Below, one piece after another: positions 7,993 to 55,265 of a stretch of 64,000 bases of DNA (its first letter is position 1; every line of letters begins with the position of its first letter). The position numbers were made by a program, and so were the translations under genes. Below the pieces are notes generated by a model. The model saw nothing but the letters and a program-made list of their open reading frames with translations. It was not told the origin of the DNA and did not search any database. This stretch comes from Hyphomicrobium sp. (GTDB lineage Bacteria; Pseudomonadota; Alphaproteobacteria; Rhizobiales; Hyphomicrobiaceae): contig JALHOF010000001.1 in NCBI GenBank assembly GCA_022843145.1, positions 248,001-312,000 of the forward strand, in the 5' to 3' direction.

Positions 7993-8040
7993 ATCCTCGT
8001 TCGAGCAGGCCGATCTCAGCAGCTCCCTGCCTAGTTTGTG

Positions 8041-8055
8041 TTAATCTTCCTTTAA
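8041..8055 (+). promoter_or_regulatory. full CtrA-type box upstream of xerC
   Basis: TTAA (8041-8044), seven bases, TTAA (8052-8055), followed by CCAT. This is the complete TTAA-N7-TTAA arrangement bound by the alphaproteobacterial cell-cycle regulator CtrA, placed 25 bp before the xerC start where it could control the promoter. Confidence 0.55.
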
Positions 8056-8080
8056 CCATCTGCCCGCAACGCTCGGCTGC

Positions 8081-43040: not shown

Positions 43041-43639
43041 GTCGATAGAACACCGCGACGTCGAAGCTCTTCGACCAGCGCGAGAAGCGGCATCCCGAGG
43101 ATCGTGAAGTAATCGCCCTCGATGCGCTCGAAGAGCTGCACGCCACGGCCTTCGATCTCATAGGCGCCGACGACGCCGAGTACGCGCGGGCCAACTGACG
43201 CGAGATAGGCGTCAAGAAATTCTTCGGAGAATGGCCGCATTACAAGCCGCGCCGATTGCACATGCCGCCACACCACGCGCCCGTTTTCGGCGAGCACGAC
43301 GGCGGAATGAAGCGCGTGTTCGCGTCCTTTCAAGCGCAGCAGACTTTTGCGCGCCGCTTCGAGGTCGGCGGGCTTCTCAAAGACTTCGCTGCCAAGCGCG
43401 AGGATCTGGTCACCGCCAATGACAAGGGCGTCGGACTGCGTCCGGCTGACAGCTTCGGCCTTAACGCCCGCCAGATGCTGCGCGAGGGTGACCGCATCGA
43501 TCAATTCGGCTTTCGACATCATCGTGGCACGGGCGGCGCGTTCGTCGACGCCCGACGCCACGGCATCGAAGCTAAGTCCTGCCGCCGTCAACATTTCGCG
43601 CCGAGCCCGGCTTTCAGAAGCAAGGATCAAGCGCATCAT
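43037..43639 (-). CDS. Maf family nucleotide pyrophosphatase
   Basis: A 200-residue Maf protein that hydrolyses modified or canonical (d)NTPs (often dTTP/UTP or m7GTP) and affects septation. The phosphate-binding loop LILASESRARREMLTAAGL (S-x-S-x-x-R), the Lys-rich KAEAVSR, GGDQILAL with the catalytic Asp, and YEIEGRGVQLFERIEGDYF are typical. The start ATG overlaps the ppsR stop by one base (TGATG) with GGAG 5 bases upstream; a neighbouring ATG three bases on is possible. Second gene of the operon running leftward from the putative origin. Confidence 0.95.
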   Translation of the reverse strand: MMRLILASESRARREMLTAAGLSFDAVASGVDERAARATMMSKAELIDAVTLAQHLAGVKAEAVSRTQSDALVIGGDQILALGSEVFEKPADLEAARKSLLRLKGREHALHSAVVLAENGRVVWRHVQSARLVMRPFSEEFLDAYLASVGPRVLGVVGAYEIEGRGVQLFERIEGDYFTILGMPLLALVEELRRRGVLST

Positions 43640-44496
43640 CAATACTCCGCGCCGTCCGACGCATCCGCGACACCCGAGTTGCGGTCGTTCAGCAACTTGA
43701 TGATCATGGCAGACGATTCCTCGATGGACTTTCGCGTGACGTCGATGACGGGCCATCCGTACTTGCCGCAGATCTTACGGCAATGAGCGATCTCGGCGGC
43801 AATCAAATCGCGATCGACATAGGTGTCCATGTCGCGGTCCGACATCAGCATGGCCCGGTTGCGGCGCACTTCGGAAATGCGCTCGACGCTCGCCACGAGG
43901 CAGACCACGAACGCCGTATGCGGCTGCGTCAGCGACGCCGGCAACGGGATCGACGGCACGATCGGCAGATTGGTCGTCTTGTATCCGCGCTGCGCGAGAT
44001 AGATCCCGGTCGGCGTTTTCGACGTGCGCGAGATCCCGAGCAGGATGATATCCGCGGTGTTGAGGTCTTCCGGAAGCTGGCCGTCGTCGTGCGTCAGCGT
44101 GAAATTCAGTGCATCGATCCGCTTGAAATAATCGGCATCGAGGACATGCTGGCCAGCCACCGTGGGCGTCTGCGGCGCACCGAGGTAGCTTTCGAAAACC
44201 TGCATGATGGGCGACAGCGCGGCAAGGCACGGGACCTTGAGCTCGCGGCATCGGCGCTCGATCTCCGTCGCCAGAGCCGGATTAACGACTGTATAGAGCA
44301 CGATCCCCGGCGCTTGCTCGATCTCCTGCAGCACACGCGTCAGTTGCCGGCTGGTCCGCACCAAGGGATGCATATGCTCGATGGGCCGGACTTGCGCGTA
44401 TTGCACGGCCGCAGCCTTGGCGATGGCGTTCAGCGTTTCGCCGGTCGAGTCCGAAATCAGATGCAGGTGGTAGTAGCTGGTGGGGGGCGTGGCCAT
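43639..44496 (-). CDS. pyruvate phosphate dikinase / PEP synthase regulatory protein (DUF299)
   Basis: A 285-residue bifunctional kinase/pyrophosphorylase that switches PPDK or PEP synthase off and on by phosphorylation on Thr/His. The P-loop-like GISRTSKTPTGIYLAQRGYK, HLISDSTGETLNAIAKAA at the N-terminus, and TNLPIVPSIPLPASL are family marks. This gene is the RP001-type neighbour that flanks the origin in Rickettsia and Caulobacter, with hemE on the other side, and here too it is the first gene leftward of the gene-free gap. First gene of the ppsR-maf-aroE-coaE-dnaQ operon. Confidence 0.95.
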   Translation of the reverse strand: MATPPTSYYHLHLISDSTGETLNAIAKAAAVQYAQVRPIEHMHPLVRTSRQLTRVLQEIEQAPGIVLYTVVNPALATEIERRCRELKVPCLAALSPIMQVFESYLGAPQTPTVAGQHVLDADYFKRIDALNFTLTHDDGQLPEDLNTADIILLGISRTSKTPTGIYLAQRGYKTTNLPIVPSIPLPASLTQPHTAFVVCLVASVERISEVRRNRAMLMSDRDMDTYVDRDLIAAEIAHCRKICGKYGWPVIDVTRKSIEESSAMIIKLLNDRNSGVADASDGAEY

Positions 44497-44511
44497 GTGC
44501 AGAACTGCCGC

Positions 44512-44563
44512 GGTTATCCAAGGTTATACAGCGGCGGATGCAACCAGCGGCGGTGATCCACCC
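44512..44563 (+). promoter_or_regulatory. DnaA-box-like sites in the putative origin
   Basis: GGTTATCCA and GGTTATACA are near-identical direct repeats one helical turn (11 bp) apart at 44512 and 44523; TTATCCAAG and TTATACAGC differ from TTATCCACA by 2 and 3 bases. A third site, TGATCCACC at 44554-44562, is one base from the TGATCCACA used by Caulobacter DnaA. They also lie in the ppsR promoter space, so a regulatory role there is possible. Confidence 0.55.
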
Positions 44564-44876
44564 CGGCTGCACGGCCATACACCGTGATACCCACATTTGA
44601 CGGGAAACGGATGGATTATTTGCGATCCTCGACACCCTGTGGAGTGCGATCTCATCCGACGGTTTTCCCCCCGCAACCCACAGGCAGGCACTGATGAGCG
44701 CAACCCTCGGGCTTGGCCTAACCGACTGAGGAGAAACATTTCTGCGGCGTCTGGTAGCGAAGCCAGCGTACACACGCTAAACCTGGACCCGATCTCGCGG
44801 CATGAGAACAACCTGGGGACGATGTTGGGTTCGCCCGGTATCCCCGAAGTTCGACCTCCTAAGAGATAATAAAAAT

Positions 44877-44897
44877 AAGCCTAGAAGGCTTTTCTAG
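44877..44897 (+). promoter_or_regulatory. two mutually exclusive hairpins before hemE
   Basis: AAGCCT (44877-44882) can pair with AGGCTT (44886-44891), or CTAGAA (44881-44886) with TTCTAG (44892-44897). The two hairpins share bases and cannot coexist. They end 15 bp before the hemE start, next to its ribosome site GAGG. Either a leader switch for hemE or part of the origin's unwinding element. Confidence 0.35.
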
Positions 44898-44912
44898 ATT
44901 GGAAAGAGGACC

Positions 44913-45989
44913 ATGCCCCCGTCCACGACCGCAGCGAATTCGAAGGCAGCTCACCGCCGTTTCCTCGCCCCCTTCCGTGGCGAAGCACTCGCAATCCCGC
45001 CGATGTGGCTGATGCGGCAGGCCGGCCGCTATCTACCGGAATACCGTGAAACGCGCGCCAAAGCCGGCGGATTTCTCAAGCTGTGCTACACGCCGGAACT
45101 GGCCGCCGAAGTGACGCTGCAACCGATCCGCCGCTATGGCTTCGACGCCGCGATCCTGTTCTCCGACATCCTCGTCGTCCCGGATGCGCTCGGCCAAAAG
45201 CTCACGTTCGCCGAGGGGGAGGGGCCCCGGCTCGAAGCAATCAGATCGGTTGCAGACCTCGGCCGACTCAGCCCAGAGAAGACCGGTGAGAAGTTCGGGA
45301 AGGTGTTCGAGACGGTTGCACGGCTCCGCCAGGATCTCCCGGACGAGACGGCGTTGATTGGATTTTGCGGGGCGCCCTGGACGGTGGCGACCTACATGGT
45401 CCAGGGCGAAGGATCGACCGACCAGGCCGAGGCGCGGCTGTGGGCATATCGAGATCCGGACGGCTTCGCATCGTTGATCGACACGCTCGTCGATACGTCG
45501 ATTGTCTACCTCGACGGCCAAGTCAAAGCCGGCGCGGATTGCCTTCAAATCTTCGATACGTGGGCTGGAAGCCTGCCGGATACCGAGTTCGATCGGTGGG
45601 TGGTCGAGCCGACCAAGCGCATCGTCGAAGCGCTCAAGGAACGCCATCCCACCGTGCCGATCATCGGCTTTCCACGCGGTGCGGGTGCGTCGAGCCTCTG
45701 GTATGTGTCCGAGACGGGCGTCGACGGTATCGGCTGCGATACCGCCATGCCGCCCTACATGATGGGCGAGGCGTTCGAAGAGGAAGAAGTCGTTGTCCAG
45801 GGCAACCTCGATCCCTTGCTGCTCGTGACCGGCGGTGACGCCATGGACGAGCGCGTCGACGAAATTCTCGAGTTGATGGACGGCAAAAGGTTCATCTTCA
45901 ATCTCGGGCACGGCATCGTGCCGCAGACTCCGCCCGAAAACGTGGCGCGCCTCGTCGAGCGTGTGCGGCGGCAGGGAGACGCGGCGTGA
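44913..45989 (+). CDS. hemE: uroporphyrinogen decarboxylase
   Basis: Decarboxylates uroporphyrinogen III to coproporphyrinogen III in haem synthesis. The 358-residue protein has the signature PPMWLMRQAGRYLPEYRE, AAILFSDILVVPDALGQ with the catalytic Asp, GFCGAPWTVATYM and the C-terminal FNLGHGIVPQTPPENVARLVE. ATG follows GGAAAGAGGACC. hemJ starts inside its stop (GTGA overlap). It marks the right edge of the candidate origin. Confidence 0.97.
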   Translation: MPPSTTAANSKAAHRRFLAPFRGEALAIPPMWLMRQAGRYLPEYRETRAKAGGFLKLCYTPELAAEVTLQPIRRYGFDAAILFSDILVVPDALGQKLTFAEGEGPRLEAIRSVADLGRLSPEKTGEKFGKVFETVARLRQDLPDETALIGFCGAPWTVATYMVQGEGSTDQAEARLWAYRDPDGFASLIDTLVDTSIVYLDGQVKAGADCLQIFDTWAGSLPDTEFDRWVVEPTKRIVEALKERHPTVPIIGFPRGAGASSLWYVSETGVDGIGCDTAMPPYMMGEAFEEEEVVVQGNLDPLLLVTGGDAMDERVDEILELMDGKRFIFNLGHGIVPQTPPENVARLVERVRRQGDAA

Positions 45990-50678: not shown

Positions 50679-50694
50679 TGTTTCACGTGAAACC
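50679..50694. promoter_or_regulatory. parS centromere site 1 (mnmE-mnmG intergenic)
   Basis: TGTTTCACGTGAAACC contains the perfect 14-bp palindrome GTTTCACGTGAAAC and matches the parS consensus TGTTTCACGTGAAACA in 15 of 16 bases. It is a ParB-binding and CTP-dependent loading site, 6 kb from the putative origin and 2.8 kb from parA. Confidence 0.92.
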
Positions 50695-52775: not shown

Positions 52776-53473
52776 AGCCGGTGCAGAGGGGCGGCGCAAC
52801 GCCAGCCGGGACGGCCGCTGCCAAGTCCGAGCCAGAGTCCGCCGACGCGGTCTCGCGGGTTGCCGCTGTTTCACGTGAAACGCGCGAAAAGTTAGAGGCT
52901 TACGTCACGCTCTTGAAGTTGTGGCAGAAGACGATCAACCTGGTCGCGCCGGCCACCCTTGCCCACGTTTGGAGCCGGCACGTCGCGGATTCCGCGCAAC
53001 TGTTCGCGTTCGCTCCTGAAAGTGCCAAGAGCTGGGTCGATCTCGGTTCCGGCGGCGGGTTCCCAGGGCTCGTTCTCGGGATCATGCTGGCCGAGCGGCC
53101 TGGAGCGCGGATGACGCTGATCGAAAGCGACAGCCGGAAGGCCGCATTTCTGCGCGAAGTGGCGCGTAACGTCTCGGCACCTGTGGACATCCTGTGCACG
53201 CGAATCGAGAACGCGGCGACTCAGTTTAGCGTTGCAAGCGTCGATGTGGTGACAGCACGCGCGTTAGCTCCGCTTCCACGGTTGTTTGGTTTGTGCCGCC
53301 CGCTGTTCGGTCCGACGACCATCGCACTCTTTTTGAAGGGCCGCGATGCCGAAGCCGAACTCGCTGAGGCGCAAGCCCAATGGTCACCGACGTGGCCGTT
53401 TTCCGCGGAGCTGGTGCCGAGCCGTACCGACAGCGAAGGGCGTATCGTCATCGTGCGCCCTCGCGAGGTTTAG
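52772..53473 (+). CDS. rsmG: 16S rRNA (guanine527-N7)-methyltransferase RsmG
   Basis: A 233-residue SAM-dependent methyltransferase (GidB) modifying G527 of 16S rRNA. Motif I is [17 protein letters not shown], followed by [18 protein letters not shown] and [13 protein letters not shown]. The first 28 residues are an Ala/Pro-rich extension. Residues 32-36 VSRET are encoded by a parS site. It starts in the mnmG stop and is 15 bp before parA, forming mnmE-mnmG-rsmG-parA-parB. Confidence 0.96.
52867..52882. promoter_or_regulatory. parS centromere site 2 (inside the rsmG coding sequence)
   Basis: TGTTTCACGTGAAACG contains the same perfect 14-bp palindrome as site 1, in frame in rsmG where it encodes VSRET. 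It is 0.6 kb from parA and 8 kb from the putative origin. Coding-sequence parS sites are known in other bacteria; the VSRET amino-acid motif is common in RsmG. Confidence 0.9.
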
Positions 53474-53488: not shown

Positions 53489-54319
53489 GTGTCAGCAGCA
53501 GCAGGCTCCCCGGGGCTCCGGGTCATCGGGATCGCAAATCAGAAGGGCGGCGTCGGTAAAACGACGACGGCCATCAATCTCGGCACCGCGCTCGCCGCCG
53601 TCGGAGAACGCGTACTGGTGGTCGATCTCGATCCGCAGGGAAACGCTTCGACCGGGCTCGGCATTGCAGCCGACGTCAGGACGCGGACGTCCTATGACGT
53701 GCTCGTGGGTTCGGTGTCGTTGCTCGAAGCCGCCTTTCCGACCGCCGTCCCCGGGCTTCATGTCGTCGCCGCCAATTCCGATCTGGTTGGCCTGGAAAGC
53801 GAAGTAATGGCCGACCCGGGCCGGCCGTTCCGGCTGCGCGATGCGGTTGCGGCGCTCGTCGCACATCAACGCACGCGGCCGGCCGATCAGGCATTCTCTT
53901 ATGTGCTGATCGACTGCCCGCCGTCGCTCAATCTCTTGACGCTCAATGCGATGTCGGCGGCCCACGCCGTACTGGTTCCCGTGCAGTGCGAGTTCTTCGC
54001 GCTCGAGGGAATTTCGCAGCTCAAGGAATCGATCGATCAGATCCGGGCCACGCTCAATCCGACGCTGGAGATACAGGGCGTCGTGCTGACGATGCACGAT
54101 GCGCGCACGACGCTGTCACGGGAAGTGGCGGCGAACGTCCGCGAGTTCTTCGGGCCCAAGGTCTACGAGACGGTCATCCCGCGGAACACGCGAGTTGCCG
54201 AGGCGCCGTCGCACGGAAAACCGATCCTATTGTACGACTACGACTGTGCGGGCAGCCAAGCGTACATCCGCTTGGCGACTGAGATTATCGAACGCGAGCG
54301 GCACATCAAGGCGGCCTAG
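53489..54319 (+). CDS. parA: chromosome partitioning ATPase ParA
   Basis: A 276-residue deviant Walker ATPase that moves ParB-parS complexes along the nucleoid. The motif KGGVGKTTT (19-27) with the signature Lys, the VVDLDPQGNAS Walker A', DCPPSLNLLTLNAM and the C-terminal YIRLATEIIERE are present. Start is GTG with GGAGG 8 bases upstream. Directly upstream of parB (61 bp), downstream of rsmG; with two parS sites in the 4 kb preceding, the partition system is complete. Confidence 0.97.
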   Translation: MSAAAGSPGLRVIGIANQKGGVGKTTTAINLGTALAAVGERVLVVDLDPQGNASTGLGIAADVRTRTSYDVLVGSVSLLEAAFPTAVPGLHVVAANSDLVGLESEVMADPGRPFRLRDAVAALVAHQRTRPADQAFSYVLIDCPPSLNLLTLNAMSAAHAVLVPVQCEFFALEGISQLKESIDQIRATLNPTLEIQGVVLTMHDARTTLSREVAANVREFFGPKVYETVIPRNTRVAEAPSHGKPILLYDYDCAGSQAYIRLATEIIERERHIKAA

Positions 54320-54380
54320 GGCGCAGGCCCTGGATCGCGGCAAGACGTCAAGACGGCACGAGAGAGGAAGAAGACCCGTG

Positions 54381-55265
54381 ATGAATTCACCGTTGCCCAA
54401 GAGCAGACTGGGTCGTGGGCTGGCATCGCTGATCGGTGAGCCGGTATCCGCCCAGCCTCGGCTGCCGGCCGAGGGCGAGCAGCGGGTGGTTCCGGTCGAG
54501 TTGCTGCGCGGTGGCAAATTCAATCCGCGAAAGGACTTCCGCGAGGAGGAACTGGCGGAGCTCGCGGATTCAATCCGCACCAAGGGACTGGTTCAGCCGA
54601 TCGTGGTGCGGCCGGACACGGCGACGGGTGGTTATGAGATCGTTGCTGGCGAGCGCCGCTGGCGGGCCTCGCAGAAGGCAGGTTTGCATTCGGTCCCGGT
54701 GATCGTGCGCGATCTTTCCGACAAGGAAGTGCTCGAACTCGCCATCATCGAGAACGTCCAGCGCGCCGATTTGAACGCCATCGAAGAGGCCGCCGGCTAT
54801 CGCGATCTGATCGAGCGGTTCGAATACAGCCAGGAACAGGTGTCCGAGATTATCGGCAAGAGCCGTAGCCACGTCGCCAATACGCTCCGCTTGTTGAAGC
54901 TGCCCGAGAGCGTGCAGGCGATGGTGCAGGATGGGAAGCTGACGGCCGGGCACGCGCGAGCCCTGATTGGACAGGCGGATGCCGAAGCGTTGGCGCAGCG
55001 CGTTATCGACGGCGATCTCAATGTGCGCGAGGTCGAGGCTCTGGTGCAGGGCGGCGGTATTGGCGATGCCGGACCGTCGGGGCGAAAGCCGCGCGACAAG
55101 GATCCCGACACCCGCGCCTTCGAGAAGGAGCTGACCGATATTCTGGGTCTCAAGGTCGAGATCAAGCGCGGCTCGGGCGAGAGCGGGCACCTCGTCATCA
55201 AGTATGGCAACTTCGATCAGCTCGACTATATCCGGCTCAGGCTTGGCGGCGGTACGGATGGCTGA
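54381..55265 (+). CDS. parB: chromosome partitioning protein ParB
   Basis: A 294-residue CTP-dependent DNA clamp that loads at parS. Seen parts: the N-terminal ParA-activating basic segment (KSRLGRGLASLIGEP), the CTP-binding motifs C1-C3 including GERRWRAS and ENVQRADLNAIEEA, the HTH (SQEQVSEIIGKSRSHVANTLRLL) that recognises parS, and the C-terminal dimerisation domain ending YGNFDQLDYIRLRLGG. ATG 54381 is chosen; GTG three bases earlier is possible. The two parS palindromes in this window are its expected targets. Confidence 0.97.
   Translation: MNSPLPKSRLGRGLASLIGEPVSAQPRLPAEGEQRVVPVELLRGGKFNPRKDFREEELAELADSIRTKGLVQPIVVRPDTATGGYEIVAGERRWRASQKAGLHSVPVIVRDLSDKEVLELAIIENVQRADLNAIEEAAGYRDLIERFEYSQEQVSEIIGKSRSHVANTLRLLKLPESVQAMVQDGKLTAGHARALIGQADAEALAQRVIDGDLNVREVEALVQGGGIGDAGPSGRKPRDKDPDTRAFEKELTDILGLKVEIKRGSGESGHLVIKYGNFDQLDYIRLRLGGGTDG

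What the first reader, a model, noticed from the sequence alone, without database searches (positions are those of the whole stretch)
44497..44912. Candidate chromosomal origin between the ppsR-type gene and hemE
The gap has the gene neighbourhood of known alphaproteobacterial origins (hemE on one side, the RP001/DUF299 gene on the other). Gene orientation diverges from it, DnaA-box-like sites are phased by 11 bp, an AT-rich patch abuts hemE, and two parS sites and parAB lie 6-10 kb away. It lacks any TTAA-N7-TTAA box, so CtrA control as in Caulobacter may be absent or different, which would be worth knowing.
Basis: partly seen in the sequence, partly recalled or inferred. Interest (0 to 1): 0.72.

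Follow-up and report, generated by a model that had tools for sequence, protein, structure and literature searches.

The report
Chromosome replication origin beside hemE
The gap is very probably the ordinary chromosome replication origin of a Hyphomicrobium relative, at the place already known from Caulobacter and Sinorhizobium; [quoted passage not shown]

Summary
The 416-bp gap lies between a ppsR/DUF299 gene and hemE in a Hyphomicrobium relative (3.93 Mb, 28 contigs). It holds the least stable DNA of the 64-kb window and four weak DnaA-like sites (two mismatches each, about 0.5 expected). It lies within 300 bp of the cumulative GC-skew minimum of a 363-kb contig stretch. The genome's only two parS cores are 6 and 8 kb away. 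Two of three single-contig family members switch skew at the same locus. Across 40 family gaps, DnaA-type core motifs and the AT-rich block are conserved. I conclude it is oriC: a new member of a known kind, not a discovery.

The missing CtrA box is confirmed and general: 0 of 40 family origins have TTAA-N7-TTAA. In Hyphomicrobiales this is not new (S. meliloti, Brucella). CtrA itself is present (91% identical to Caulobacter).

Following that up gave something I did not find described. A CtrA box lies 820 bp upstream of dnaA, overlapping a promoter-like element. It is conserved across the family: 49 of 66 with at most one mismatch at the same place (2 expected), 23 perfect. Other families of the order mostly lack it (2 of 25). 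CtrA may therefore act through dnaA transcription rather than at oriC. This is untested.

The parts
44497..44912 (.). putative oriC, intergenic between ppsR and hemE
43639..44496 (-). ppsR / DUF299 (COG1806, RP001-type) gene, left origin flank
   Evidence: PRK05339, 4.8e-93
44913..45989 (+). hemE, uroporphyrinogen decarboxylase, right origin flank
   Evidence: TIGR01464, 1e-121
44496..44504 (-). degenerate DnaA box (TTCTGCACA) overlapping the ppsR start; relatives carry TGTGGATCA/TGTGGATAA here
44514..44533 (+). two weak DnaA-like sites 11 bp apart (TTATCCAAG, TTATACAGC), seen within the genus
44554..44562 (+). DnaA-like site TGATCCACC (Caulobacter G-box type, one mismatch to TGATCCACA)
44575..44598 (+). 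most conserved inner block, family consensus TtgtCCACnGngATACCCACAtT: two DnaA-type sites 12 bp apart; the stretch 44582-44598 occurs once in the genome with no mismatch
44839..44856 (+). two abutting weak DnaA-like sites next to the AT-rich block (family consensus AATnCCCGcaATCCaC)
   Evidence: assignment is inference
44858..44899 (+). AT-rich unwinding-element candidate (CCTAAGAGATAATAAAAATAAG...), least stable stretch of the window
50679..50694 (.). parS site 1 (TGTTTCACGTGAAACC)
52867..52882 (.). parS site 2 (TGTTTCACGTGAAACG)
53489..54319 (+). parA
   Evidence: ParA/MinD-type ATPase, below the equivalog cut-off; by position next to parB
54099..55265 (+). parB (as listed from the first ATG; the true start is probably downstream of the parA stop)
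   Evidence: TIGR00180 1.6e-57

Best explanation
The gap 44497-44912 is the chromosomal origin oriC. DnaA is inferred to load on a set of weak, helically spaced sites, of which the inner block 44575-44598 and the pair abutting the AT-rich stretch are the best conserved, and to open the duplex at 44858-44899 beside hemE. The two new origins are then segregated by ParAB through the two parS sites 6 and 8 kb away. CtrA does not bind this origin directly. If CtrA controls initiation, the best candidate route is a conserved CtrA box at the dnaA promoter (own genome C5:247978-247994, outside the window). Location, skew, conservation and motif counts are shown; DnaA binding, opening and CtrA action are inferred.
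For: Gene pair as in Caulobacter (PMC1914354). Skew minimum of 363 kb at 45212. The same locus is the skew switch in two single-contig relatives. parS and parAB adjacent, and the only parS in the genome. Lowest duplex stability of the window. Weak DnaA-like sites enriched. In 40 family gaps, the core T[GT][AGT]TCCAC occurs 1.12 times per gap against 0.07 in shuffles, and CCTAAnAR 1.10 against 0.11. Gap length is conserved at 387-516 bp.
Against: No DnaA box with fewer than two mismatches in this species, and 44514-44533 is a genus-level feature. The skew trough is flat over 5.5 kb, so skew alone cannot choose the gap. G018 shows a step in skew but no sign change. No marker-frequency, footprint or autonomous-replication data. 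The genome is in 28 contigs, so a whole-chromosome skew could not be drawn for it.
Confidence: 0.93

Rival explanations
1. The origin lies elsewhere in the neighbourhood or next to dnaA, and the gap is only a conserved divergent promoter region.
For: The dnaA upstream region (1.2 kb) has a good DnaA box (TTATCCACC, C5:248095) and a CtrA box. The skew trough extends to 49.5 kb.
Against: No skew minimum at dnaA: the C5 minimum is at 88.7 kb and dnaA at 247 kb. Relatives switch skew at ppsR, 216-407 kb from dnaA. The AT-rich minimum and DnaA-type cores are in the gap.
Confidence: 0.05
2. CtrA controls this origin directly through a divergent, non-consensus site that a consensus scan misses.
For: Wolbachia and Ehrlichia authors considered diverged CtrA sites (PMC1914354). 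CtrA sites next to the origin are known in Hyphomonas (PMC7200025).
Against: CtrA here is 91% identical to Caulobacter's and canonical boxes exist elsewhere in this genome, so specificity is probably unchanged. Sites with at most one mismatch occur in 1 of 40 gaps against 3 expected, and TTAAC halves are rarer than by chance.
Confidence: 0.1
3. The CtrA-like box upstream of dnaA is only a conserved sigma-70 minus-10 element (TAGTTA/TAGTAA) that happens to look like half a CtrA box.
For: It lies about 17 bp downstream of a conserved CTTG and its right half coincides with a plausible minus-10.
Against: The left half GTTAA is conserved as well, the spacing is exactly 7, and 23 of 66 have all eight bases within 32 bp of CTTG against 0.15 in shuffles.
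Confidence: 0.3

Closest known systems
Caulobacter crescentus Cori (hemE - COG1806/CC0001)
   Same: Same flanking genes, AT-rich stretch, weak DnaA-type sites including one close to TGATCCACA.
   Different: Cori carries five CtrA sites (PMC1914354); this gap has none.
Sinorhizobium meliloti chromosomal oriC
   Same: Chromosomal origin without CtrA motifs and not bound by CtrA (PMC4433202). That it lies next to hemE is my recollection of Sibley 2006.
   Different: The held S. meliloti CtrA paper does not mention dnaA in its main text, and Brilli 2010 reports no CtrA sites upstream of dnaA in Rhizobia (PMC2877005). The Hyphomicrobiaceae have one.
Rickettsia origin between hemE and RP001
   Same: Same gene pair (PMC1914354).
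   Different: Described by those authors with CtrA, DnaA and IHF sites; no IHF consensus match was found here.
Hyphomonas neptunium origin
   Same: Stalked budding alphaproteobacterium with CtrA pathway.
   Different: CtrA binds next to its origin by ChIP-seq (PMC7200025).

Membership tests
alphaproteobacterial hemE-type oriC | intergenic gap flanked by hemE and COG1806/DUF299 | tested here: met
   same pair in 14 named relatives and across the family loci
alphaproteobacterial hemE-type oriC | GC-skew switch at the gap | tested here: met
   partial contig for the own genome
alphaproteobacterial hemE-type oriC | DnaA boxes enriched | tested here: met
   only weak sites (two mismatches), enriched over shuffles; conserved cores in relatives
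alphaproteobacterial hemE-type oriC | AT-rich unwinding element | tested here: met
alphaproteobacterial hemE-type oriC | IHF site (present in published cases; not treated here as a strict requirement) | tested here: inconclusive
   no match to WATCAANNNNTTR in the gap, but IHF sites are degenerate and only the consensus was scanned
Caulobacter-type CtrA-controlled origin | TTAA-N7-TTAA boxes in the origin | tested here: not met
   0 of 40 family gaps
DnaA box / DnaA-trio basal unwinding system | DnaA box, short spacer, at least three NAN trinucleotides | tested here: inconclusive
   weak boxes abut ATAATAAAAATAA, but strand and frame were not scored against the published program (PMC8287927)
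replication origin | replication starts here in vivo | not testable with these tools
   needs marker-frequency sequencing or an oriC plasmid

The most novel reading that the evidence does not exclude
In the Hyphomicrobiaceae, direct CtrA control of the origin is replaced by CtrA control of the initiator: a CtrA box overlapping the spacer and minus-10 of a promoter about 0.8 kb upstream of dnaA, next to a DnaA box, lets phosphorylated CtrA shut off dnaA transcription in non-replicating swarmer cells.
Probability: 0.45. Interest if true: 0.62.

Novelty: new member of a known kind. Interest (0 to 1): 0.42.

Why it matters
As an origin it is expected: the location was predictable from Caulobacter. 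The useful part is the contrast that follows from it. S. meliloti needs CtrA to couple replication to division although CtrA does not touch its origin, and its authors call the route indirect and unknown (PMC4433202). Hyphomicrobiaceae, a family that includes budding bacteria with a non-replicating swarmer stage, show a conserved CtrA box at the dnaA promoter and none at oriC, which makes one concrete route testable with a single ChIP-seq or promoter fusion.

Tried and rejected
Sigma-70 and terminator scan of the dnaA upstream region: no promoter by E. coli consensus, but an rpsT terminator-like hairpin. Rfam scan of the window and of C5:240001-260000: only 5S rRNA outside the window, so no known sRNA explains the dnaA leader. 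IHF consensus in the gap: none. CcrM GANTC sites in the gaps: no enrichment and none in the window gap. A DnaA-trio reading of the AT block was considered and left open. Rival origin at dnaA rejected on skew.

Full report
What was claimed and what is there. The 416-bp gap 44497-44912 lies between a ppsR/DUF299 gene (PRK05339, 4.8e-93) and hemE (TIGR01464, 1e-121). The window is C1:248001-312000 of a 3.93-Mb, 28-contig genome. Its nearest hemE relatives carry Hyphomicrobium names. The left arm reads ppsR, maf, aroE, coaE... timA, mltA-like, all leftward. The right arm begins hemE, then rho, mnmE, mnmG, rsmG, parA, parB.

Is it the origin? Cumulative GC skew over C1:92001-455378 falls to a minimum at window 45212 and rises after it. 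The trough is flat from about 44.0 to 49.5 kb, so the skew places the origin to a few kb and the gap is chosen within it by the other features. Sampled 20-kb stretches of three single-contig family genomes were taken as a test. In G061 and G041 the skew changes from about zero or negative to clearly positive in the 20-kb bin of ppsR. In G018 it rises from +0.03 to +0.11 without a change of sign. The only two parS cores of the genome are at 50680-50693 and 52868-52881.

Anatomy. No site with at most one mismatch to TTATCCACA is in the gap, but four with two mismatches are, against 0.45 expected from the window, and 0 of 500 shuffles reach four. The least stable 40 bp of the whole window are 44860-44899. 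An alignment of the gap in family members shows what is kept: a DnaA box over the ppsR start (strong in relatives, degenerate here), the block TtgtCCACnGngATACCCACAtT (window 44575-44598), CTaGTGGc, and AATnCCCGcaATCCaC followed by CCTAAgAg and an A-rich run. Over 40 distinct gaps the core T[GT][AGT]TCCAC occurs 1.12 times per gap against 0.07 in shuffles, and CCTAAnAR 1.10 against 0.11. The exact block 44582-44598 occurs once in the genome; the next matches have three mismatches.

Rival place. dnaA lies on contig C5, minus strand, start codon at 247158. The cumulative skew of C5 has no minimum there. In G061 and G041 dnaA is 216 and about 407 kb from ppsR, and the skew switch is at ppsR.

CtrA. 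The gap has no TTAA at all, and none of 40 family gaps has TTAA-N7-TTAA. One has a site with a single mismatch, against three expected, and TTAAC halves are rarer than in shuffles. Full CtrA boxes with a terminal C occur 21 times (both strands, palindromes counted twice) against 6 for the reversed control. Several sit 12-110 bp upstream of ORFs, for example that of a XerC-like recombinase in this window (the gene names there are my reading of the translations, not a family search). Absence of CtrA from the origin is not new in this order: S. meliloti's origin has no CtrA motif and is not bound (PMC4433202), and Brucella CtrA does not bind its origin (PMC2877005).

Where CtrA may act instead. 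One of the boxes, GTTAAAGAGTAGTTAAC (dnaA strand), is at C5:247978-247994, 820 bp upstream of the dnaA start codon, 379 bp after rpsT, and about 100 bp downstream of a DnaA box TTATCCACC. In family members the same place has a conserved CTTG followed by a GTTAA-N6-GTTAA-like sequence. Of 66 upstream regions, 23 have a perfect TTAA-N7-TTAA within 32 bp downstream of CTTG (0.15 in shuffles) and 49 have one with at most one mismatch (2.0 in shuffles). The shuffles keep base composition only, and related genomes are not independent, so these numbers overstate the significance; the fixed position across several genera is the stronger argument. In 25 dnaA loci of other families of the order only two, both of one family, have a full site (0.8 expected). 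The right half coincides with a plausible minus-10 about 17 bp from CTTG, which suggests repression, but this is inference. Brilli 2010 noted that CtrA sites are absent upstream of dnaA in Rhizobia (PMC2877005); a site 0.8 kb away could be missed if only a short promoter stretch is scanned. For Caulobacter a modelling paper states that CtrA activates dnaA (PMC8865702), so a CtrA-dnaA link as such is not new, and its sign there is the opposite of what the anatomy suggests here. I found no description of the conserved box in Hyphomicrobiaceae in the held library, which lacks most subscription papers.

Verdict. The finding is a correct identification of an expected origin: new member of a known kind.

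Noticed in passing
own genome C5:247978-247994 (locus L202 7978-7994); family loci L211-L240, L241-L280: CtrA box conserved about 0.8 kb upstream of dnaA in Hyphomicrobiaceae, downstream of a conserved CTTG, with a DnaA box about 100 bp further upstream.
   Followed up: yes
window 8040-8056 (C1:256040-256056): Perfect palindromic CtrA box GTTAATCTTCCTTTAAC about 40 bp upstream of an ORF encoding a XerC-like tyrosine recombinase; possible CtrA control of chromosome-dimer resolution.
   Followed up: partly
C5:118815-118841: Two overlapping CtrA boxes about 0.4 kb upstream of an outer-membrane efflux-like gene.
   Followed up: no
G041, G044, G059, G141, G191 contig 1: dnaA starts within about 120 bases of the record start in these single- or few-contig genomes, so the records look rotated to dnaA, although in G041 the skew switch lies at hemE-ppsR, hundreds of kb away.
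   Followed up: partly
L038-L066, L073-L077 (Bradyrhizobium, Pseudolabrys and others): No ppsR match by tblastn within the fetched flank of hemE in these Hyphomicrobiales; the origin flank gene is moved or diverged there.
   Followed up: no
window 44724-44734 and relatives: Many relatives have TTGACTC (a GANTC CcrM site) at this aligned place in the gap; the window and its two genus members lack it.
   Followed up: partly
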